Position numbers and translations under genes: made by a program. A stretch of 50,164 nucleotides of DNA from an uncultured Muribaculaceae bacterium (lineage in GTDB: Bacteria > Bacteroidota > Bacteroidia > Bacteroidales > Muribaculaceae): the NCBI GenBank assembly GCA_947627615.1, contig CANQWS010000023.1, forward strand, positions 1 through 50,164. Reading direction: 5' to 3'. Shown here one piece after another: positions 40,726-50,164 of this stretch; positions within the stretch are counted from its first letter, which is position 1; the number at the start of each line of letters is the position of its first letter. The notes beneath the pieces were generated by a model. That model was not told the origin of the DNA and ran no database searches. It was given only the letters and a program-made list of their open reading frames with translations.

Positions 40726-41268
40726 TTATTCTATAGGCGTGAGCGCGCCGGTTACGGAATCCATGATGTAACCGCGTACCTTGACGTCGGCTGCCATGAG
40801 CGGATGGCGGGCTATGAGGTCGACAGTCTCGCTGATGGCATCGGCTGTGTTTTCAAAGCCGTGGAGCCAGCTGTCAAGGTCTATTCCGCAGTGGCGCATG
40901 AGGGTGATGTGTTCGTCGCTGATACCGCGGCGGCGCATGGCTTCGAGCATCTCGGCCGAATCCATGCCCTGAACGCCGCATTCCGTATGGCCTATCACCA
41001 TGATTTCGTTGACGCCCAATTCATAGACGGCCACAAGCAGTGACCTTATGGTGGAGTCAAACGGATTGGTTATGGTGCCGCCGGCATTCTTGATGATTTT
41101 GACATCGCCGTTGCGCAGGCCCAGAGCCGCCGGCAGCAGCTCCACCAGACGGGTGTCCATGCAGGTGACAATGGCGATGCGTTTGTCGGGATACTTGGAG
41201 GTGATGAACTTTCTGTAGGCTCCCGAGGCCACAAACTCGGCGTTATGCCTCAAAATCTCTTCAATCAT
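40726..41268 (-). CDS. Beta-carbonic anhydrase
   Basis: Hydrates CO2 to bicarbonate, useful for carboxylation and succinate production in the gut. 180 residues. Zinc ligands and gate are visible: C36-x-D38-x-R40 (CMDTR) and H94-x2-C97 (GHTEC). NAGGTITNPF is the usual following loop. It begins 24 nt after the sulfatase-fold gene and is the last gene on this strand before ribH, so it may be read from the long upstream operon. Confidence 0.92.
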   Translation of the reverse strand: MIEEILRHNAEFVASGAYRKFITSKYPDKRIAIVTCMDTRLVELLPAALGLRNGDVKIIKNAGGTITNPFDSTIRSLLVAVYELGVNEIMVIGHTECGVQGMDSAEMLEAMRRRGISDEHITLMRHCGIDLDSWLHGFENTADAISETVDLIARHPLMAADVKVRGYIMDSVTGALTPIE

Positions 41269-41292
41269 GATTCTTTCTCTTATATCGGTTTA

Positions 41293-42987
41293 TTATCGGT
41301 TCGTATGTTCGTAAGGCCAGATTTCTTCATCGACGTATCTTGGCCGGATTCTGTAATCGTCTGAAAGGATGTCGCTCTGAGGGTCATATCCGCTGTAGCC
41401 GGTTCCGGTGACCGAGAGCAGCAGATGGACCATACTGGCGGTTGACATGGGTTTCGACACGGCGTCACGCAGCCGTTCAATGATTTCCGCGTTGTTCCGT
41501 CGGTAGGCGTCGTTGGCATAGATTATGAACGGAACCTCCACAAAACGGCCGCCTCTGCCGGTGACGCCTCCTTCATCGTAGACGTTCTCTCCGTGGTCGG
41601 AGAAATAGATCAGCACGGTGCTTTCGGTCGAGTGTCTGATTTTCCCGATGATTTCGTGAAGGATATAATCGGTGTATCTTATTGAGTTGTCATATCCTGC
41701 CCGTCGGCGCGCCATGGTTCCGTCAAGGTTCAGCGACGGGAACGAACGGGTTTCATCGTCAGCGGTGAATATGTCGAATTCAGCGGGGTATCGGTGGGAG
41801 TATTCGGTGTGGGACCCAAGCAGATGCAGCATGATCAGTTTATGGGCGGCGCTGTCGGCCACGGCCTCGGAGAACGGTTTCAGCAGTACCTCGTCATACT
41901 TCACGGCCAGAGCGTCCTCGCTGTTCTCGGCCCCCACATATCGGATCACCGATGCGTTCATGACCATGACGCCCGATGTGTTGCTCACGCTGCCAGTGCG
42001 TTCCTGATTCGAAAGCCAGAAGGTCCGGTAACCGGCCACGTTGAACACGTCAATCAGCAGCGGGTAGCGGAGGCCGTCGCCGCAGGTGGCGTCATCTTTT
42101 TTGAACGAAAGTATCCGCTCCATGTTTCCGGACGTGTTTCCGGCAGAAGCGATGACATCGGTGAAAACGAAAAGACTGTCGGCCATCGATTCCATGAACG
42201 GGGTGGTGGGCAGCGGATAACCGTAGAGCGAGTGGTGGGACCTCGATGCCGATTCGCCTATGACCACAATCACGTTATCGGCCAGATGCAGGCTTGAAAC
42301 ACTTCCGGCATCGGGCAGCTCAGGCTTTTTTGACGCGAGCTCAGTATAAGTCCGGTGCCACTGCATGACCTCATGGCCGTACTTCAGCGTCCGTGCCGAC
42401 AGCAGATGTGCCGTCCTCCCGGACGTGAAGCATATTGAAAAGACAATGGCGGCCACCAGTCCGAGGACACTTGCGGTGCCGGTTATCAGGCAAAACATCC
42501 TTTGGGACGCACGGCGCGTCAGCCATGCAAGCAGCGATATTGCCGCAATGGAAATATACGGCCACGGTGTCCTGAGGCATCCGAGGATGTTCAGCAGTAG
42601 TCCGGGCATGAACTCGGCCGCTTCATTCGGGGTGGTCTGTGCCAGTATCAGAATCAGCTTCCGTGTGATGCCGAAGCCATAGAATGCGTAGCTGACGAGA
42701 TTGACCAGCGACAGGAGCGTATATGCAAAAATCAGTATCCATGCTATGGGGCGCCCGATTCTGTGTTTCAGCAGTAGCGCCGCGGCGAGGGTAATCACCG
42801 TTGCCTTGAAAGCCGCTACAACCGGAGTGTAGATGACGCAGAGCCATGCGGGCCAGTCGCAATAGGAAGCGCAAGTGATGTCAAAGACGCTCATGATGCT
42901 TATAATCCACAGAAACAGCCATAGGTATCTGTGACTGTAGAGCAGGTCTGAAATCCTTGAAAGCGACAGGTTCCTGAGGGTCATCAT
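41293..42987 (-). CDS. Phosphoethanolamine transferase-like (EptA/CptA) membrane enzyme
   Basis: 564 residues: about five transmembrane helices (~15-165) then a periplasmic alkaline-phosphatase/sulfatase-fold domain. The active-site stretch VIGESASRSHHSLYGYPLPT (~240) resembles that of lipid A or core phosphoethanolamine transferases, with Ser in the GE(S/T) position. LLGSHTEYSHRYP (~395) and YFSDHGENVYDEGG (~450) carry the other metal ligands. It probably decorates lipid A or another surface glycan. It starts 6 nt after the TIR-like/PstS-like gene, which places it inside the unusual operon. Confidence 0.85.
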   Translation of the reverse strand: MMTLRNLSLSRISDLLYSHRYLWLFLWIISIMSVFDITCASYCDWPAWLCVIYTPVVAAFKATVITLAAALLLKHRIGRPIAWILIFAYTLLSLVNLVSYAFYGFGITRKLILILAQTTPNEAAEFMPGLLLNILGCLRTPWPYISIAAISLLAWLTRRASQRMFCLITGTASVLGLVAAIVFSICFTSGRTAHLLSARTLKYGHEVMQWHRTYTELASKKPELPDAGSVSSLHLADNVIVVIGESASRSHHSLYGYPLPTTPFMESMADSLFVFTDVIASAGNTSGNMERILSFKKDDATCGDGLRYPLLIDVFNVAGYRTFWLSNQERTGSVSNTSGVMVMNASVIRYVGAENSEDALAVKYDEVLLKPFSEAVADSAAHKLIMLHLLGSHTEYSHRYPAEFDIFTADDETRSFPSLNLDGTMARRRAGYDNSIRYTDYILHEIIGKIRHSTESTVLIYFSDHGENVYDEGGVTGRGGRFVEVPFIIYANDAYRRNNAEIIERLRDAVSKPMSTASMVHLLLSVTGTGYSGYDPQSDILSDDYRIRPRYVDEEIWPYEHTNR

Positions 42988-42993
42988 CGGAAT

Positions 42994-44433
42994 TTAATTC
43001 TCCTTTACGTAAATGTCCGAAAGCGTATGGATCACATTGTCTTCGCCGTCAGAGATATAGAAGCGCTTCGCATTGAGAATCGCATCGATTTTGGGTGAGG
43101 AACCCAACGGCAGATTTCTCAGGAGCTTTTTGGTGACATCGGGAAACTCCAGCCCGCCGTCACGGGCATTGGCAAGGCAGTAGAGCATTATGGGATTCTC
43201 CACAGGTCTGTCCAGGGAATCAACCAGAATCATAGGCTTCGGTCGGAGGACAGAGTCGGCATTGTTGAAGACAAGCGGATAGTAATGGCGAGTGCCGAGC
43301 ACCATGAACGGTTTCCCTTTTTTGGATAGCGTAAGGAAATCCGAGGTCTCGGTGTAGAAAAGGTCCGGGTCCGAAAGACCGGTGCCGTACTGCGGCAGAA
43401 CGGACTCGTAGGCCCGGCGGGTCCCGCTTCGGGAGGTCGTTGGCAGCACGTTCAGACTGTCACTGTTCAGGCTGATGACCTCGGCAAGTCTCCGGATGCT
43501 TATTCTGCCGGAATTAAACTCGTTGGTGAGAAGTTTTTTCGTGTAGTCAGTCTGTTTAGCATAAACCACGAGCGTGTCGTTGCCCAGATGGAAGGATATG
43601 ACGGCTCCCTTTTCCAGAAATTTATCCTTACTGATTATGTTGGAGAGGAAAGCCGAGTCTGTGGCTACGGAGGCGGAGATGCAGACCGGGACATAACGCT
43701 GGGTCCGGCTGTCGGAATTCGAGAGAACCTCTTCCGTGAGCAGCTGCCATGCCGCCTCGCTCGGCAGATGAAGATAGAAGCCTCCGGGATAGTCCTTGAT
43801 ATTAATCTTTTTGGTCTTTGCGGAAACATAGTTGGCGGCCGATCCCCCTCCGGCTATGATGATGGTCTGGCTCTGGTGGAAAAACATGAAGGCAAGCAGC
43901 CCTATAATGGTCAGCACGGAGGCAATCAGGGCCCATGGCAGGAAGCCTGAAGGCCTGGTTTTAGAGCAGGATTTATGGATGTAATGGCGCAGACGCCTGG
44001 CTGACTGGAACGCAAGGTCGTCATCGTCGGTATAGTCTATGCAGTATTTCTGAATCGAGGCATCCAGCAATCCTTTTATGAATCCCTCGTTGTGAGCGTC
44101 CTCATTGGTTTTATGGTCGGACTTGTGGATAAAAATGTGGATGTCGGGCCGTCCTTTGGACTTGAAGGATTCTATGGCCAGATTTAATTCCTCACGGGTC
44201 TTGTCGCCTGTCTTGCCGTCGATTATAAAGAACACTATGTCGGCTTCATCGGAAATGATCCGGTTGTAGGCGTTCTGGCTGTCCTCGGCGTTGTCGTGGG
44301 AGCGCATCCGCAGCGTGACGTTTTTCTTTTTCTCATGCAACTCGTCGTTGAGGTCCGAGGCCATCGCCTTGAGGATGGAGCGCTCTTTCTTCAGCCTGGT
44401 GGAGCCGGCGATGAATATTGTGATTGTCTTCAT
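42994..44433 (-). CDS. TIR/DUF4062-like cytoplasmic domain - transmembrane helix - PstS-like periplasmic domain
   Basis: 479 residues, three parts. Residues ~1-155 resemble a TIR/DUF4062-type nucleotide-related domain: FIAGSTRLKKERSIL, DIVFFIIDGKTGDKTREELN with a Glu in the place of the TIR catalytic Glu. One transmembrane helix spans ~165-185 with positive residues before it, so the rest is periplasmic. The outer part (~188-479) begins IIIAGGGSAANYV, has HLGNDTLVVYAKQ and TSRSGTRRAYES (336-339 SGTR), recalling the phosphate-binding protein PstS. A one-piece receptor with outside sensor and inside effector is inferred. Neighbours: RyR gene 44 nt upstream, Ept-like gene 6 nt downstream. Confidence 0.7.
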   Translation of the reverse strand: MKTITIFIAGSTRLKKERSILKAMASDLNDELHEKKKNVTLRMRSHDNAEDSQNAYNRIISDEADIVFFIIDGKTGDKTREELNLAIESFKSKGRPDIHIFIHKSDHKTNEDAHNEGFIKGLLDASIQKYCIDYTDDDDLAFQSARRLRHYIHKSCSKTRPSGFLPWALIASVLTIIGLLAFMFFHQSQTIIIAGGGSAANYVSAKTKKINIKDYPGGFYLHLPSEAAWQLLTEEVLSNSDSRTQRYVPVCISASVATDSAFLSNIISKDKFLEKGAVISFHLGNDTLVVYAKQTDYTKKLLTNEFNSGRISIRRLAEVISLNSDSLNVLPTTSRSGTRRAYESVLPQYGTGLSDPDLFYTETSDFLTLSKKGKPFMVLGTRHYYPLVFNNADSVLRPKPMILVDSLDRPVENPIMLYCLANARDGGLEFPDVTKKLLRNLPLGSSPKIDAILNAKRFYISDGEDNVIHTLSDIYVKEN

Positions 44434-44477
44434 ATTGCGGGAGGGATTGATTGGTTAGAAAAGCGATGCGCGGGCCT

Positions 44478-45713
44478 TCAGATAAGGGCTGTGAGCAGGC
44501 GGCCTATGAGATTCTGCGGGCGGTATTTCTGCATGAGAATGGTGGGCATGGCGAGCATGATGAAGCAGTCATATTTGAGGTCATCGGGATTGATACGCTT
44601 CAGGTCGGCGTTGCTGACAAGGTCAATGTGGGCGGGCGCTTTGTCCCGTTTTTTGAGTCCTTTGCGGTAGTCATTGCGGTGGTTCAGTTTTATCTCGTCC
44701 GTATAGGATTCGCTCCGGCTGAGAGGACTGAAACCGAGTATCAGCTTCTCGGCGTTCCAGCGGGAATGTTCGCATTCCGACAGTGCCTTGAGATTTCCGG
44801 CTATAAGCCTATGGATTGTATTGGCGTTGGACAGCAGGGTTTTATGGGTGAAGCGCTTCGGCGCGTCGGCCATCAGCCCCTGAATGCGTGACTCGAATGT
44901 GTCGGCACAGAATATACATGACAGTATGTTGTTGATCTGGCTGCGTGTCAGCTTGTCGTCACCATCGGTCTTGTTTCTAAAATTCTTGTGCCAGGACTCT
45001 TTTGTTATCTTGCGTTTGGTGCCATTGAGGCATTTAAGGGCCAGACCGTAGCGGTTTGCCTTTTCGTTTTCGGTCGAAGACAGATTGCTTATTTCCTCTC
45101 CGGCCGAATAGGCCTGATTGACAAGCATTGCGGCCGCCAGCTCTCTGTCGGTCAGGAACATGTCATGGTCGTTTTCGACGATCTTCTCGATTCCCTCTTT
45201 GGTGATCAGGGTCTCGTCGGGAGCTTTGCTGTAAGAGTCAGTGGCCTTGAGCACGAACTGAATATCGAGAAACGGCAGCCCGGGCTTGACTTTCCTCTCT
45301 TTTTCATCAGCGGGTTCAAGGATGTATGTACTGTGGCGTATCAGGTTGCAGAGGTATTCCTCCCGGGCCAGACAGTCTATTTCGGCCTCAAGCTTTTTCA
45401 GTCCGAATTCCTTGGGATATAAGATGGTAATGGTGGAGATGTTTTTCCCCGTTCCCTCATTGAAATTGGGAAAGTGGGCAAGAAGGGCAATGTGCCGGAC
45501 CACGGAGTAGACCAGCGGTCCGTGGCCCTGGATTGCAATTCTGAATGCTCTGGAACTCTTCGGCCCGATTCCCCCTCCGGTCCAGTCCGGGAAGGAATCG
45601 AGCACATAGCGGCGAGCGCGGTACCAGTTGGGGACTACGACCGTGTCAAAATGCCCGGTGTCCGGTTCTGCAGGTCTCAGCTTCTGGAATATTTCTTTAC
45701 ACTGGTGTTTCAT
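44478..45713 (-). CDS. Rossmann (TrkA-N/KTN-like) plus ryanodine-receptor (RyR) domain protein
   Basis: Start set at ATG 45713 (MKHQCKEIF, 411 aa), overlapping the channel gene by 17 nt; the frame is open further but runs deeper into that gene. FRIAIQGHGPLVYSVVRHIA (~60-80) has the GxGxxx pattern of a TrkA-N/KTN Rossmann domain. The last ~105 residues match the bacterial RyR domain: ECEHSRWNAEKLILGF, then KKRDKAPAHIDLV and a closing hydrophobic segment. Published comparative genomics proposed that bacterial RyR domains bind nucleotide-type ligands in conflict systems. The overlap with the MscS-type gene suggests the two products work together. Confidence 0.75.
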   Translation of the reverse strand: MKHQCKEIFQKLRPAEPDTGHFDTVVVPNWYRARRYVLDSFPDWTGGGIGPKSSRAFRIAIQGHGPLVYSVVRHIALLAHFPNFNEGTGKNISTITILYPKEFGLKKLEAEIDCLAREEYLCNLIRHSTYILEPADEKERKVKPGLPFLDIQFVLKATDSYSKAPDETLITKEGIEKIVENDHDMFLTDRELAAAMLVNQAYSAGEEISNLSSTENEKANRYGLALKCLNGTKRKITKESWHKNFRNKTDGDDKLTRSQINNILSCIFCADTFESRIQGLMADAPKRFTHKTLLSNANTIHRLIAGNLKALSECEHSRWNAEKLILGFSPLSRSESYTDEIKLNHRNDYRKGLKKRDKAPAHIDLVSNADLKRINPDDLKYDCFIMLAMPTILMQKYRPQNLIGRLLTALI

Positions 45714-46908
45714 CACATTCGTTTTTATATTGTGCAGTCTCTTTGGAGAGATAGATATTGGAGTTGGAGACGTCAAATGCCGATGCGTTCTGATAGAGCC
45801 GCAGGTTGAACCATTTCATTGATTCGAGGATGTGTTCAATTATGGCTGACTGGGTCCATTCGAAAGGCTCGAGCGAGATTTCGGTCAGGTAGGCGTAGAC
45901 CTGCAGGGGCACTCCGTTGTCGGTCGGTTCCAGATAGCGGACCACAAGACGCGGCCTGCGGCACACCTTCTTGTGGTTCATGAGCCAGTGGAACAGATAG
46001 AGACGGAAGAGGTGGATGTTGAGAATCTGTCGGTTTCCGGCATTGGCTTTGCGGATGGCGTCAATGAATTCCGATTCCTTGAAATGGTCGTCGGTGTCGA
46101 GTTTCTTTGCAATGGCCCGGGCCTCGTCGACAGTCAGGGGCTGTATCCAGCCCGAGTCAATGGTGAACGACATCAGCATTCTGCGGCCGTGGGTTTTGCC
46201 CAGAAGCATTGACTGCAGGTTGGTAAAGCTGTCGGAATGGAGCATGTAGGTGGGGAACGAGGTCTCGGTAGTGTCCCAGTTCTCTACCGTGACCATTGTC
46301 AGGGTTATGCGTTTGACCATGCCGTCAATCTTCTTTGAATCGATTTTAATCCAGTCGTCTATGTGGATCATTCCGTTGATTCTGACATAGATGAAGGCCA
46401 CAACGCTCTTGATTGTGTCCTGGAAAATCCATGAAATCAGCGTGCCGGCTGCCGCAATGACAAGCATGTCCTTCACCTGATCAAGCTCAAAGATGATTAT
46501 GACGGCTGAAAGCCAGCCACCCAGGGCCACCAGAATGCATATCTGGCTCACGGTGATCCGGATTTCCTGCCGGCGGATGCTGAAAAGGGGCGTCAGCTTG
46601 TGCACAATCCAGATGATTTCACCGAGAATTAGAGTGCATAAGGCGAATTTCAGGGTCTTCTCGCCGAAGAAATCCTTGATGTGCCACGCCGTATCCTCCA
46701 GACTGGAGTAATCGATGCCTCTCCACACCAGTGCCACGGCGATGAAAGGCAACAGGTCAACTATCAGACACGCTATCTGATAAATCATGTAGCCTGCTAT
46801 CTGCCACAGCCATGATTTGGATGACAGGACCCGTGACAGGAATTTCCTGCGGATGAAGTCCAGATAATTCCAGCAATAATAAAAGACTGATTTCAATTTC
46901 TCTTTCAT
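45697..46908 (-). CDS. YbdG/MscM-type mechanosensitive channel (MscS family)
   Basis: 403 residues. About five transmembrane helices occupy ~35-190. The MscS pore and beta domain follow: AAAGTLISWIFQDTIKSVVA, IHIDDWIKI, ITLTMVTVENWDTTETSFPT and SFTNLQSM, close to E. coli YbdG. The C-terminal domain NIHLFRLYLFHWL to RYLEPTDNGVPLQVYAY is also YbdG-like. Opens on membrane tension or on a partner's signal. It overlaps the RyR gene start by 17 nt and follows the barrel gene by 26 nt, so ligand gating through the RyR protein is plausible. Confidence 0.88.
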   Translation of the reverse strand: MKEKLKSVFYYCWNYLDFIRRKFLSRVLSSKSWLWQIAGYMIYQIACLIVDLLPFIAVALVWRGIDYSSLEDTAWHIKDFFGEKTLKFALCTLILGEIIWIVHKLTPLFSIRRQEIRITVSQICILVALGGWLSAVIIIFELDQVKDMLVIAAAGTLISWIFQDTIKSVVAFIYVRINGMIHIDDWIKIDSKKIDGMVKRITLTMVTVENWDTTETSFPTYMLHSDSFTNLQSMLLGKTHGRRMLMSFTIDSGWIQPLTVDEARAIAKKLDTDDHFKESEFIDAIRKANAGNRQILNIHLFRLYLFHWLMNHKKVCRRPRLVVRYLEPTDNGVPLQVYAYLTEISLEPFEWTQSAIIEHILESMKWFNLRLYQNASAFDVSNSNIYLSKETAQYKNECDETPV

Positions 46909-46934
46909 TGTTCGGATGTGATAATGTCGGTTGG

Positions 46935-47558
46935 TCAGTTGAAGTTATAGGCCATGCTCAGGTCGGCCGTCTCCGTGCCGCCGTCAACTCTCAGCTGAAT
47001 CCACAGGTTGTTGTTGAACTTGTAGCGGACGGTCCCGACCATGCCTTTATGAGACCTGAACGAGTAACCCACATTGAAAATTGTGCGGATGCGGTCAAGA
47101 TTCATGCCTGCCACCATCTGGAAGCGGTCGGTGTCACACCATCGTCGGCCGTCGTAGACGTTGTCCCACGTGGCATCGATCATCACTCCGGCGGGCAGCT
47201 TCACCGTGGCGGCCAGCGACTGCACGAAACGGCTCTCCTTGAAGTTGTAGATGCTTCGGGTCAGCAGATAGTAGCGTCCCGCCACGTTGAAATTCAGCCA
47301 TATCGAGGGCATGAAAGCCTTTGACGAGAAGTTGTAACGGGCCAGGCCGGTTGCATTGAACCAGCTGCAAATATCCTGCTTGTAGCCGAAATAGGTCGAG
47401 GCCGAGGCATCGCCGCCCTTGTAAGGCTGTGAAACCGCGCCCCAGAAACGGAAACGGTCGGGCTGCGTGATGCCGTCGTAGATCTGGGCCGCACCCTGCA
47501 GCCCTCCCGCAACAACCATCAACGCCACCCATATCGCTATTTTAATTTGTCTTGTCAT
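46935..47558 (-). CDS. Small outer-membrane beta-barrel-like protein
   Basis: Start set at ATG 47558 (MTRQIKIAIW, 207 aa) for a clean signal peptide ending GGLQGAAQ; an ATG seven codons upstream is possible. The mature part alternates polar and hydrophobic residues in 8-10 strands with many aromatics at strand ends (FRFWGAVSQPY, STYFGYKQDI, ARYNFSSKAF), ending AYNFN. No family recognised. It lies between the TIR-TPR and channel genes in the operon and would add an outer-membrane component. Confidence 0.68.
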   Translation of the reverse strand: MTRQIKIAIWVALMVVAGGLQGAAQIYDGITQPDRFRFWGAVSQPYKGGDASASTYFGYKQDICSWFNATGLARYNFSSKAFMPSIWLNFNVAGRYYLLTRSIYNFKESRFVQSLAATVKLPAGVMIDATWDNVYDGRRWCDTDRFQMVAGMNLDRIRTIFNVGYSFRSHKGMVGTVRYKFNNNLWIQLRVDGGTETADLSMAYNFN

Positions 47559-47587
47559 ATTCGATATATTTAACTGCATAAGATGTC

Positions 47588-50104
47588 TTAATTGCTTTTT
47601 GAGCTGCCGCCTTCAAGCATTTTTGCCTTGACAGATTCTATGTTTTGTTTTACTGTGGCTACGTAATCATGTTCCTCGCCATATAAATCGCTAAGTATTT
47701 GAAGAGCTTTATTGTAATTCTCTAAAGCCATCTGGTATTCACAATTGTCATCATATACTAATCCGATGTTATAGAAGGATTCAGCCACATCCTGATGGTT
47801 TTCGCCGAATAGTGGTAATCGGATATTTAAAGCCTTATTAAGGTTATCCAACGCTAAACGGTAATCACCCTTAACACCGTGTATACATCCTATATTGTCA
47901 TAGAGCGTAGCCACGTCGGAATCGTTTTCGCCGAATGCTGACGATTTGATATTCAAAGCCTTGTTAAAATTCTCCAAAGCCGCGGCGAAATCTTCCTGAC
48001 AATAATAGATATTTCCTATATTATGATATGTTCTAGCGACATCCGGATGGTCCTCGCCGAGTCTCAACAATTGTATTTTCAATGCTTTTTGATAATTCTC
48101 CAAAGCAGAGTCATAGTCCCTTTTACTTTCATAGATATTTCCAATACTGTTGTATGAGGTCGCTACATCCGGATGATCCTCGCCGAGTCTCAACAATTGT
48201 ATTTTCAATGCTTTGTAATGATTCTCCAATGCTTTGGCATATTCGCCTTGCGAATCATATACAAGTCCGATAAAGCTGTAGCTTGTAGCCAAATCGGGAT
48301 TTCCCTCACCGTAAATCTTACGTTGTATGTTCAGCGCTTTTTGGGAATATTCCAATGCTTTGGCATATTTGCCCTGCGAATAATATACAACTCCGATAGA
48401 GTAGTAGCTTGTAGCCACACCGGGATGTTCCTCACCGTAAATCTTAAGCATTATGTTCAGCGCTTTTTGGTGATTCTCTAATGCTTTGGCATATTCGCCC
48501 TGAGAATCATATACAATTCCGACAGAGCCGTAGCTTGCAGCCACGCAGAGATGTTCCTCACCGTAAATCTTACGTTGTATGTTCAGCGCTTTTTGGGAAT
48601 ATTCCAATGCTTTGGCATATTCGCCCTGAGTATTATATACAACTCCGATACAATTGTAGCTTACAGCCACACCGGGATGATTCTCACCGAAAATCTTAAG
48701 CTGTATGTTCAGCGCTTTTTGGGAATATTCCAATGCTTTGGCATATTTGCCCTGCGAATAATATATTCCTCCGATGTTGTCGTAGCATTCCGCCACATCC
48801 GGATGGTTCTTGCCGAGAATCTTAAGCCGTATGTTCAGCGCTTTTTGGGAATATTCCAATGCTTCGGCATATTCGTTTTGTGAACAATATACGATTCCGA
48901 TTCTGATGTAGCTTGTGGCCATATCAGGATGATTTTCACCTAAAATCTTAAGCCGTATGTTCAGCGCGTCTTCATTATATTGCAGGGCATCGCTATAATG
49001 ACCTAATTCGTTACAAAAAAATGCTATAGAGGATATCGCGTCAGCATATTCTTCTGAATATTTACCATAAACCTGTTCGGTTAAGGTAACTATTTTTTTG
49101 TGTATTGCTTCTGTTTCTTCTCGCCAACCGTTGGATAGCTCTGTTCTCAGTATATCAATTTTCAGTTTTAGTTCGGCGATATTGTTTTTAAGACCTTCTT
49201 TCCCAAGTTCTATGTTCTTTAGGTTTCGATTTATGTCGCAATCTATCTCCGCCTCATCGAGGATGGCGTTGGCTCCTCTGTTATCGCCCATGTTGAATAG
49301 CTCTATGGCACGTTGAAGTCGCTCCGAACTTGCTTTGTTGCTCAGACGAGTTATGGTAAGTGCAGTGTGCCACAGGCTTTCTTCCATTTTCTGCCGTTTC
49401 TCGGTCAAGTCCTGCAGTTCCTGAGCATATTCGGAATAATCGGGGTCAGAAACTTCGGTTTTTGCAAGAAATTTTCGTGTTTTCCTGATATTTTGAAGCA
49501 ACTGTTGGTATTCCTCATTGTTGCCTACAAATCCCACATTATTTAGGTCTACATACTCCCGACCGGCAACACAAACTTTGGCGTCTTTTACTTCCACGAG
49601 ACCCGTCATGGAATTCTTTTGCTGTGAATTCTGATAGTCGATGAATTGAAGCAGGAAATGCGATCTAAGCGCGTCCTCGTTCCTGAACACACAATAGAAG
49701 TGGCCGTAAAGAGAGGGAAAGCTGTCGCGAAACTCCTTCAGTTCGGGGGTAAGCTCTTGTTCCGATTCTTTGAAATAGACGTAGAGCTTGCGTGGATTAC
49801 GTCCGGCGCACAGTTCGGAATAAGCAGTGTCAAGCTCGGTTTTGGTGTACATGCCGAATTTTGTATAATAGAGCACCATGCAGATTTCACAATCCTTAAG
49901 TTCTCTATTATATTCCTCTTGCTTGTGCAAAGGGCCCATTGAAGCGTCAAGATATTCCCACTTTATAAGCAGAATATTCATGCCAATTTTGTTGAGGCTG
50001 TAATTGAGGTGTTCTACCATCTCGGCAAGCTCCAGACGTTCAGTCTTCAGCTCATCGGACGAAGCCACGAATATCTTAATAATTTTCATTTTAGTAGATG
50101 ACAA
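47588..50104 (-). CDS. TIR/DUF4062-like domain protein with 11 kinesin-light-chain-type TPRs
   Basis: 838 residues, cytoplasmic. Residues ~1-155 form a DUF4062/TIR-like domain: IFVASSDELKTERLEL, CEICMVLYYTKFGMYTKTELD with a Glu placed as in TIR enzymes. A helical/coiled-coil linker covers ~190-345. Eleven TPRs follow (347-812), ten of exactly 42 residues with consensus ATSYxxIGxVYxSQGxYAKALE. The start could be the Met six codons in. First gene of the seven-gene operon. The gene is clearly more AT-rich than the rest of the window, and several repeats are nearly identical in DNA. Sensor or adaptor with effector domain is inferred. Confidence 0.8.
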   Translation of the reverse strand: MSSTKMKIIKIFVASSDELKTERLELAEMVEHLNYSLNKIGMNILLIKWEYLDASMGPLHKQEEYNRELKDCEICMVLYYTKFGMYTKTELDTAYSELCAGRNPRKLYVYFKESEQELTPELKEFRDSFPSLYGHFYCVFRNEDALRSHFLLQFIDYQNSQQKNSMTGLVEVKDAKVCVAGREYVDLNNVGFVGNNEEYQQLLQNIRKTRKFLAKTEVSDPDYSEYAQELQDLTEKRQKMEESLWHTALTITRLSNKASSERLQRAIELFNMGDNRGANAILDEAEIDCDINRNLKNIELGKEGLKNNIAELKLKIDILRTELSNGWREETEAIHKKIVTLTEQVYGKYSEEYADAISSIAFFCNELGHYSDALQYNEDALNIRLKILGENHPDMATSYIRIGIVYCSQNEYAEALEYSQKALNIRLKILGKNHPDVAECYDNIGGIYYSQGKYAKALEYSQKALNIQLKIFGENHPGVAVSYNCIGVVYNTQGEYAKALEYSQKALNIQRKIYGEEHLCVAASYGSVGIVYDSQGEYAKALENHQKALNIMLKIYGEEHPGVATSYYSIGVVYYSQGKYAKALEYSQKALNIQRKIYGEGNPDLATSYSFIGLVYDSQGEYAKALENHYKALKIQLLRLGEDHPDVATSYNSIGNIYESKRDYDSALENYQKALKIQLLRLGEDHPDVARTYHNIGNIYYCQEDFAAALENFNKALNIKSSAFGENDSDVATLYDNIGCIHGVKGDYRLALDNLNKALNIRLPLFGENHQDVAESFYNIGLVYDDNCEYQMALENYNKALQILSDLYGEEHDYVATVKQNIESVKAKMLEGGSSKSN
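47669..48928 (-). repeat. Ten in-frame 126-bp tandem repeats encoding TPRs
   Basis: Ten consecutive 42-codon units. Neighbouring units in 48200-48900 share long identical DNA blocks, for example around GCTTTTTGGGAATATTCCAA, which points to recent duplication or homogenisation. Repeat number could vary between strains. Confidence 0.85.
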
Positions 50105-50164
50105 AATTTGAAAATGTGTTATTAAACACCTAAATATCAGCGTATTAAATTTGCAAAAGTCCCT

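What the first reader, a model, noticed from the sequence alone, without database searches (positions are those of the whole stretch)
40726..50104. Seven-gene envelope-spanning operon combining TIR-like, RyR, YbdG channel, barrel and PstS-like parts
All seven genes are on one strand with gaps of 6-44 nt or overlaps. The first five place a TIR/DUF4062-TPR protein in the cytoplasm, a barrel in the outer membrane, a YbdG-type channel in the inner membrane, a Rossmann-RyR ligand sensor next to it, and a fusion with a periplasmic binding domain and inner TIR-like domain. RyR and TIR domains are known from predicted nucleotide-signalling conflict systems. A plausible scheme is that stress or infection changes a nucleotide or phosphate ligand, the RyR protein gates the channel, and the TIR-like domains act as effectors. 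I know of no described system with this full set.
Basis: partly seen in the sequence, partly recalled or inferred. Interest (0 to 1): 0.87.

Follow-up and report, generated by a model that had tools for sequence, protein, structure and literature searches.

The report
RyR-domain sensor paired with MscS channel
In the Bacteroidales loci examined, a small membrane channel is encoded next to a protein with a ryanodine-receptor-type domain, often near TIR-type enzymes of a kind that can cut NAD, which suggests a bacterial signalling or defence circuit in which a nucleotide signal gates a channel.

Summary
The seven genes are real, but not one conserved operon. The conserved unit is g3-g4: a YnaI/YbdG-type MscS channel (45697-46908) and a Rossmann-like protein with a divergent C-terminal RyR domain (44478-45713). 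MscS lies directly upstream of this protein in 25 of 25 loci examined. TIR proteins lie within the fetched stretch in 13 of 25, stand-alone or peptidase-linked PF02026 RyR proteins in 12 of 25; neither occurs at 20 ordinary MscS loci or in 19 stretches of one carrier contig. The window has two DUF4062-like (TIR-like NADase family) proteins instead: g1, DUF4062-TPR, and g5, DUF4062-TM-putative periplasmic domain. The two other g5 relatives matched over most of their length sit in clusters with a larger membrane protein that bears the same RyR-type C-terminus. Pfam misses RyR in g4; profile comparison through bridging proteins and conserved ligand-contact residues support it. g6 and g7 do not belong, 'barrel' and 'PstS-like' are unproven, and a multicopy element ends at g1's start codon. 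Best reading: TIR-like NADases make an ADP-ribose-type signal that g4 senses to gate g3, probably for phage defence. Function is untested.

The parts
47588..50089 (-). g1: DUF4062-like (TIR-like NADase family) domain fused to about 10 TPRs; probable ATG at 50089, 833 aa
   Evidence: Pfam DUF4062 9.1e-5 (below cut-off) and TPR_12; ORF check
46935..47579 (-). g2: 214 aa, N-terminal hydrophobic segment; putative small outer-membrane barrel, unverified
   Evidence: no Pfam hit over cut-off, no NCBIfam hit; hydrophobic 12-30; no other relative in the 65 loci scanned
45697..46908 (-). g3: MscS-superfamily channel, YnaI/YbdG-like, a distinct subfamily
   Evidence: PF00924 1.2e-8; YnaI entries in PDB; three subfamily members at 530 bits or more, next best 167 bits (two of the three were in the profile)
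44478..45713 (-). g4: Rossmann/RCK-like N-terminal domain (inferred) plus divergent RyR C-terminal domain (about residues 300-395), 411 aa
   Evidence: 24 full-length relatives; profile bridge to PF02026 domains; model pLDDT 85.0, pTM 0.88
42994..44433 (-). g5: DUF4062-like domain, one TM segment (167-185), about 290-aa putative periplasmic domain
   Evidence: phmmer hit by g1 DUF4062 3.4e-5; relatives in G693 and G827 clusters; TM by hydropathy
50089..50164 (.). end of a multicopy (IS-like, inferred) element, also near the starts of contigs C16, C17, C30; contig end
41293..42987 (-). g6: CptA/EptA-like phosphoethanolamine transferase; not part of the conserved system
   Evidence: Pfam, NCBIfam; 1 of 34 genus genomes at 1e-60, the own one; no other relative in the loci scanned
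40726..41268 (-). g7: beta-carbonic-anhydrase-like; ordinary gene, not part of the system
   Evidence: Pro_CA; 21 of 34 genus genomes; no other relative in the loci scanned

Best explanation
g3 and g4 form a ligand-gated channel: g4 is a cytoplasmic Rossmann-RyR sensor subunit and g3 the MscS-type pore. TIR or TIR-like NADases encoded beside the pair (here g1 and g5) are switched on by infection or envelope stress and turn NAD into an ADP-ribose-type nucleotide, perhaps a cyclic ADPR. The RyR domain of g4 binds it and changes the gating of g3, so that ions or solutes leak and the cell stops growing or dies, as in abortive infection. g5 would sense in the periplasm through its outer domain. In relatives, small stand-alone RyR proteins would bind or destroy the signal and limit the response. 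Shown: the gene pair, its neighbours, the homologies and the residue conservation. Inferred: enzyme activity, ligand, gating and the defence role.
For: MscS directly upstream in 25 of 25 loci; 4-nt overlap in 16 of the 21 pairs listed. MscS and g4 distances correlate, r=0.94 over 21 loci, which common descent alone could give. TIR in 13 of 25 loci, canonical RyR in 12 of 25, either in 17 of 25 (13 of 17 clusters at 70% identity), against 0 of 20 ordinary MscS loci and 0 of 19 stretches of a carrier contig. RyR homology by profile: 25 canonical domains versus 20 bridging C-termini 95.2%, E 2.7e-8; those versus g4-type 99.6%, E 1.8e-24; controls 1.1% or less. H316, W319 and D382 kept in 25 of 25 and H362 in 23 of 25, aligned with the canonical HxxW, H and D, the positions that bind the ligand in phage RyDEP (PMC13232231). 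DUF4062 is a TIR-like NADase family with antiphage members (preprint PMC13174449). At 19 loci where the same C-terminal domain was found mostly in larger proteins, TIR is near in 7 and canonical RyR in 9. The g5 relatives of G693 and G827 lie in such clusters.
Against: 8 of 25 loci show neither TIR nor canonical RyR in the fetched stretch; one is the window (DUF4062 instead), four are close relatives of each other. The window cluster has no classical TIR or PF02026 gene, although its genome has both on contig C1. Only 19 of 28 TIR domain hits show WxxxE. g1's DUF4062 hit is below Pfam's cut-off. The RCK or channel nature of the larger bridging proteins is partly inferred: Slo-like RCK is over cut-off in L144, below it in L011, absent in L010 and L055. 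Direct comparison of g4-type C-termini with canonical RyR is not significant (0.1-0.2%). Foldseek gave no match at E 0.001 or better for g4 in PDB or BFVD. PADLOC named only generic or weak hits. No activity data exist.
Confidence: 0.5

Rival explanations
1. The pair is an osmotic or envelope-stress valve set by cellular NAD/ADP-ribose level, not a defence system. The TIR-like neighbours report envelope damage, and the channel vents solutes so that the cell survives.
For: MscS channels are known safety valves (recalled). g5 and the two TIR proteins tested (L095, L111) have one TM segment and a part beyond it. TPR partners in relatives begin with signal-peptide-like stretches by reading. In L092, L094, L096 and L110 the same-strand run holds the pair and only a few other genes, in L092 a DUF4301 protein.
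Against: Patchy spread (full length in 3 of 393 order genomes) and partners such as SIR2-TIR, nSTAND1, Macro-TIR and WD40-TIR look like conflict systems.
Confidence: 0.25
2. g4's RyR domain is an enzyme or sponge that removes the signal, and g4 keeps the channel shut; the pair is an off-switch or self-protection part of a TIR system.
For: Phage RyDEP proteins hydrolyse or sequester 2'/3'cADPR with the same residue types (PMC13232231), and canonical RyR proteins are common neighbours.
Against: The link with a channel gene in 25 of 25 loci and the presence of the same domain in larger, channel-like proteins elsewhere point to gating rather than disposal.
Confidence: 0.13
3. The TIR, RyR and DUF4062 genes are chance neighbours in defence-rich regions; only the MscS-RyR pair is a functional unit, with another ligand.
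For: Order and content outside the pair vary from locus to locus; 8 of 25 loci lack both TIR and canonical RyR.
Against: 0 of 39 control stretches against 17 of 25; the same partners recur beside the larger RyR-type proteins, and g5 recurs in such clusters. The controls were not chosen to be defence-rich.
Confidence: 0.12

Closest known systems
Thoeris (TIR ThsB + ThsA effector)
   Same: TIR neighbours beside a putative nucleotide-sensing effector; eight of the neighbour proteins sent to Pfam match ThsB_TIR over cut-off (one of them at L114, outside the 25 loci)
   Different: sensor is a Rossmann-RyR protein and the effector an MscS pore; in the window no TIR, SIR2, SLOG or Macro hit; activity untested
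Swarozyc (DUF4062 NADase), PMC13174449
   Same: DUF4062-like domain in g1 and g5, with a G..T..E...A pattern by reading
   Different: partners are TPRs, or TM plus outer domain, not the HTH/winged portal-binding auxiliary domain; comes with a channel pair
RyDEP phage RyR-domain proteins, PMC13232231
   Same: RyR family and the same four ligand-contact residue types
   Different: cellular, joined to a Rossmann-like domain and paired with a channel; not an evasion protein
RCK-gated K+ channels (Slo/TrkA-type)
   Same: Rossmann-type sensor and channel; some bridging relatives have an RCK match (over cut-off in L144, below it in L011) and the same C-terminal domain
   Different: the pore is a separate MscS protein in the window type; two other bridging relatives tested had no RCK match
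MscS/YnaI/YbdG channels
   Same: pore family
   Different: a subfamily tied to a RyR-type sensor gene (530 bits or more against 167 for the next best)

Membership tests
MscS superfamily | MscS beta domain and TM segments | tested here: met
   PF00924 1.2e-8 over cut-off; 3 hydrophobic segments; YnaI PDB matches
MscS superfamily | mechanosensitive conductance | not testable with these tools
   needs electrophysiology
RyR domain (PF02026) | direct Pfam match | tested here: not met
   no PF02026 hit in g4 or in two relatives
RyR domain (PF02026) | profile-profile homology to canonical members | tested here: met
   only through bridging C-termini: 95.2% and 99.6%; merged set against canonical 92.7%, E 4.2e-7. 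Direct comparison without the bridge is not significant (0.1-0.2%)
RyR domain (PF02026) | ligand residues HxxW, H, D | tested here: met
   H316 25/25, W319 25/25, H362 23/25, D382 25/25; in register with canonical H, W, H, D
RyR domain (PF02026) | RyR fold in a structure search | tested here: inconclusive
   good model but no Foldseek match at E 0.001 or better; coordinates not available to measure the pocket
Thoeris | TIR gene plus ThsA (SIR2-SLOG or Macro-TM) effector | tested here: not met
   window: no TIR hit by my profile; no SIR2, SLOG or Macro among the Pfam rows shown for the seven proteins (25 of 34 rows shown for g1)
Thoeris | cADPR-type signal production | not testable with these tools
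   needs biochemistry
Swarozyc | DUF4062 domain with catalytic Glu | tested here: inconclusive
   g1 DUF4062 9.1e-5 but below cut-off; a Glu (E82) is shared by g5 and its G693 relative; no Swarozyc sequence was compared
Swarozyc | HTH/winged auxiliary domain binding phage portal | tested here: not met
   g1 carries TPRs; g5 a TM plus outer domain

The most novel reading that the evidence does not exclude
This is a bacterial ADP-ribose-nucleotide / RyR / ion-channel circuit: TIR-like NADases make a cADPR-type messenger that opens an MscS pore through an RyR domain. It would be a prokaryotic counterpart of the proposed cADPR control of animal ryanodine receptors, built as an immune effector, with two versions (MscS plus separate sensor, and a fused membrane protein with RCK- and RyR-type parts).
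Probability: 0.3. Interest if true: 0.95.

Novelty: new variant of a known kind. Interest (0 to 1): 0.8.

Why it matters
TIR-made nucleotide signals are shared by bacterial, plant and animal immunity, and a 2026 preprint (PMC13232231) shows that phage RyR domains bind or cleave such signals. A conserved channel whose partner is an RyR-type protein, next to TIR genes, would add a new class of effector (a gated pore) and put the question whether cADPR acts on RyR domains into a simple bacterial system where it can be tested directly.

Tried and rejected
Rejected: the seven genes as one conserved system (g6, g7). Rejected: start of g1 at 50104, which lies in the multicopy element.

Led nowhere: genome-contig scan with g5; phylum sample with g4 (1 of 395, own only); PDB sequence searches with g4-type alignments, g5 and the DUF4062 part (best hits an aminotransferase, nanobodies, kinases and a GTPase-activating protein, judged chance); first structure model, 3 sequences, pLDDT 47.9; Foldseek PDB and BFVD; direct comparison of g4-type C-termini with canonical RyR; plasmids, phages and viral contigs (no relatives of g4); one frame of the multicopy element against Pfam (no hit), so its identity as an IS is inferred only; two papers by Burroughs and colleagues, whose DOIs I recalled, are not held, so any earlier mention of RyR-TIR loci there is unchecked.

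Weak points of my counts. The TIR profile was built from 11 domains of loci in the case set (one from L114), and the canonical RyR profile from 4 domains, 3 of them from case loci, which favours hits there; neither profile hit the 39 control stretches, but both hit the separate loci of larger RyR-type proteins. The L097 TIR call rests on my profile only (Pfam table cut at 25 of 61 rows). Controls are next-best MscS loci of the same order (one stretch of 11 kb, the rest 20 kb) and one carrier contig; they are not matched by species and not chosen to be defence-rich. Case stretches differ in length and several end at contig ends. L114, a divergent locus where tblastn found no MscS, was left out of the 25. 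L095 and L100 are the loci already seen in G650 and G063. The correlation r=0.94 used 21 of 25 loci because my ORF caller missed MscS in four where tblastn found it. The loci were found by g4 peptide patterns, so more distant members are missed. Two further proteins matched by the g4 profile at 45-68 bits (L097, L114) were not counted as pairs, and one protein (L048) was hit by the canonical RyR profile but not by the g4 profile.
Full report
What is there. The region holds seven minus-strand genes at the coordinates given. Their junctions are tight (8, 26, -17, 44, 6 and 24 nt). The upstream end is not a natural operon start. The last 76 bases of the contig, which end at the A of the ATG at 50089, recur at 100% on contig C16 and at 84% at the starts of C17 and C30. 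I read this as the end of a multicopy, probably IS-type, element that the assembly could not cross. The native promoter is therefore displaced or unseen, and the TTG at 50104 lies in the element.

The conserved core. With a two-member g4 profile, 21 of 393 genomes of the order gave a match, but only 3 over the full length: own, G063 and G650. With the MscS profile the same three genomes, at the same places, scored 530-813 bits, and the next best match scored 167 (own and G063 were in the profile). A pattern scan of the genome-contig collection with a three-member g4 alignment gave 25 loci whose titles name Bacteroidales, families of that order, or Bacteroidia, many from ruminant guts. In 24 the protein is full length; the 25th, L114, is divergent and was left out. 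With the window this makes 25 loci (two of them, L095 and L100, are those of G650 and G063). MscS lies directly upstream in all 25, with a 4-nt overlap in 16 of the 21 pairs listed. At 70% identity these are 17 clusters. The closest relative of the pair is in a Muribaculaceae MAG (L090: 48% for g4, 57% for g3).

Neighbours. In the fetched stretches, TIR domains occur in 13 of 25 loci and canonical RyR domains (stand-alone or linked to a C39-like peptidase part) in 12 of 25; 17 of 25 have either (13 of 17 clusters). Of 20 ordinary MscS loci none has either (Fisher p 7e-7 for clusters), and none of 19 stretches of 20 kb from the contig that carries the pair in G650 has either. Pfam confirms TIR, ThsB-type TIR, SIR2-TIR, Macro-TIR, TIR-FGE, nSTAND1 and PF02026 RyR proteins among the neighbours sent to it. 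Locus L111 reads TPR, TIR, MscS, RyR, which parallels the window order DUF4062-TPR, g2, MscS, RyR. Against this, 8 of 25 loci have neither, and the window itself has no TIR or PF02026 protein in this cluster; its genome has a TIR-type protein and two RyR proteins together on contig C1.

TIR-like parts of the window. g1 carries a DUF4062-like domain (9.1e-5, below the Pfam cut-off). g5's N-terminal part is related to it (phmmer 3.4e-5). DUF4062 was reported in a 2026 preprint as a TIR-like NADase family with antiphage members (PMC13174449; I saw outline, abstract, the first part of the results and passages). g5 has one TM segment and a large putative outer domain. The TIR proteins of L095 and L111 have one TM segment at a similar place and keep WxxxE. 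g5 is rare: 5 of 393 genomes, 3 of them over most of the length. Besides the window these are G693, where it follows a larger protein with a g4-type C-terminus by 21 nt, and G827, where it lies in one cluster with a Slo-like-RCK protein that also matches the g4 profile (25.5 bits), a TIR protein and two canonical RyR proteins. So g5 seems to belong with RyR-type channel genes, whichever pore is used.

Is it an RyR domain? Pfam says no, and a direct profile comparison is not significant. But 20 C-termini found with the g4 profile, mostly from larger proteins, link the two: 25 canonical RyR domains match them at 95.2% (E 2.7e-8), they match the g4 family at 99.6% (E 1.8e-24), and comparisons of canonical RyR with the Rossmann part, TIR and MscS give 1.1% or less. 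In four proteins the canonical and g4 profiles hit overlapping residues. The preprint on phage RyDEP (PMC13232231; parts 1 and 2 of 6 read) names H75, W78, H100 and D117 as ligand residues of this family. Of four canonical RyR proteins aligned, all keep HxxW and the Asp and three keep the second His. The g4 family keeps H316, W319 and D382 in 25 of 25 and H362 in 23 of 25. The model of g4 is good (pLDDT 85.0, pTM 0.88), but Foldseek found nothing significant, so the fold itself is not independently confirmed.

The larger proteins. I take most of them to be two-TM channels with RCK domains followed by the RyR-type part. This is partly inferred: of the four such proteins sent to Pfam, Slo-like RCK is over cut-off in L144 and below it in L011, and L010 and L055 have no RCK match. 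At the 19 loci, TIR is near in 7 and canonical RyR in 9.

What is not part of it. g6 is a CptA/EptA-like transferase found in 1 of 34 genus genomes at E 1e-60, the own one. g7 is a common carbonic-anhydrase-like gene, in 21 of 34. Neither has another relative in the 65 loci scanned. I have no support for g2 as a barrel beyond an N-terminal hydrophobic stretch, nor for g5 as PstS-like.

Mechanism. The most economical reading is a nucleotide-gated channel: TIR-like NADases make an ADP-ribose-type signal, the RyR domain of g4 senses it, its Rossmann-like part couples to the MscS pore, and the pore change stops or kills the cell. Which steps are shown and which inferred is stated in the explanation section. 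Rivals are an osmotic or stress valve, an off-switch role for g4, and chance neighbourhood in defence-rich DNA.

What is known. Text searches of the held library showed, among the rows listed (3 to 20 per search, of up to 4,542 papers), no title or abstract describing a TIR-RyR-MscS locus. The term MscS mostly returned papers on stem cells, so this search is weak. Term look-ups in two conflict-system papers found no RyR or MscS in the text. Two likely sources by Burroughs and colleagues are not held, and I recall, without a call, that they discuss nucleotide-centred systems with such domains. I therefore rate this as a new variant of TIR-signal systems rather than a wholly new kind.

Noticed in passing
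L138 (own genome, contig C1) 4943-9942: A TIR-type protein of 1028 aa flanked by a stand-alone canonical RyR protein and by a second RyR protein (C39-like by reading), followed by a sigma-70-like gene by reading: a second TIR-RyR locus in the same genome.
   Followed up: partly
L010, L011, L043-L059: Larger proteins (two-TM with RCK-like parts, partly inferred) with the same C-terminal RyR-type domain, near TIR in 7 of 19 loci and canonical RyR in 9 of 19; possibly the fused form of the same circuit.
   Followed up: partly
L105 1006-8870: SIR2-TIR protein, nSTAND1 ATPase and a Porin_O_P protein in the same-strand run upstream of the MscS-RyR pair.
   Followed up: no
L091, L093, L095, L100, L109, L111, L114: TPR proteins with signal-peptide-like starts and a shared N-terminal region beside TIR or RyR genes; in the window the TPRs are fused to DUF4062 instead.
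   Followed up: partly
window 50089-50164; contigs C16, C17, C30: End of a multicopy element that abuts the start codon of g1; identity not determined.
   Followed up: partly
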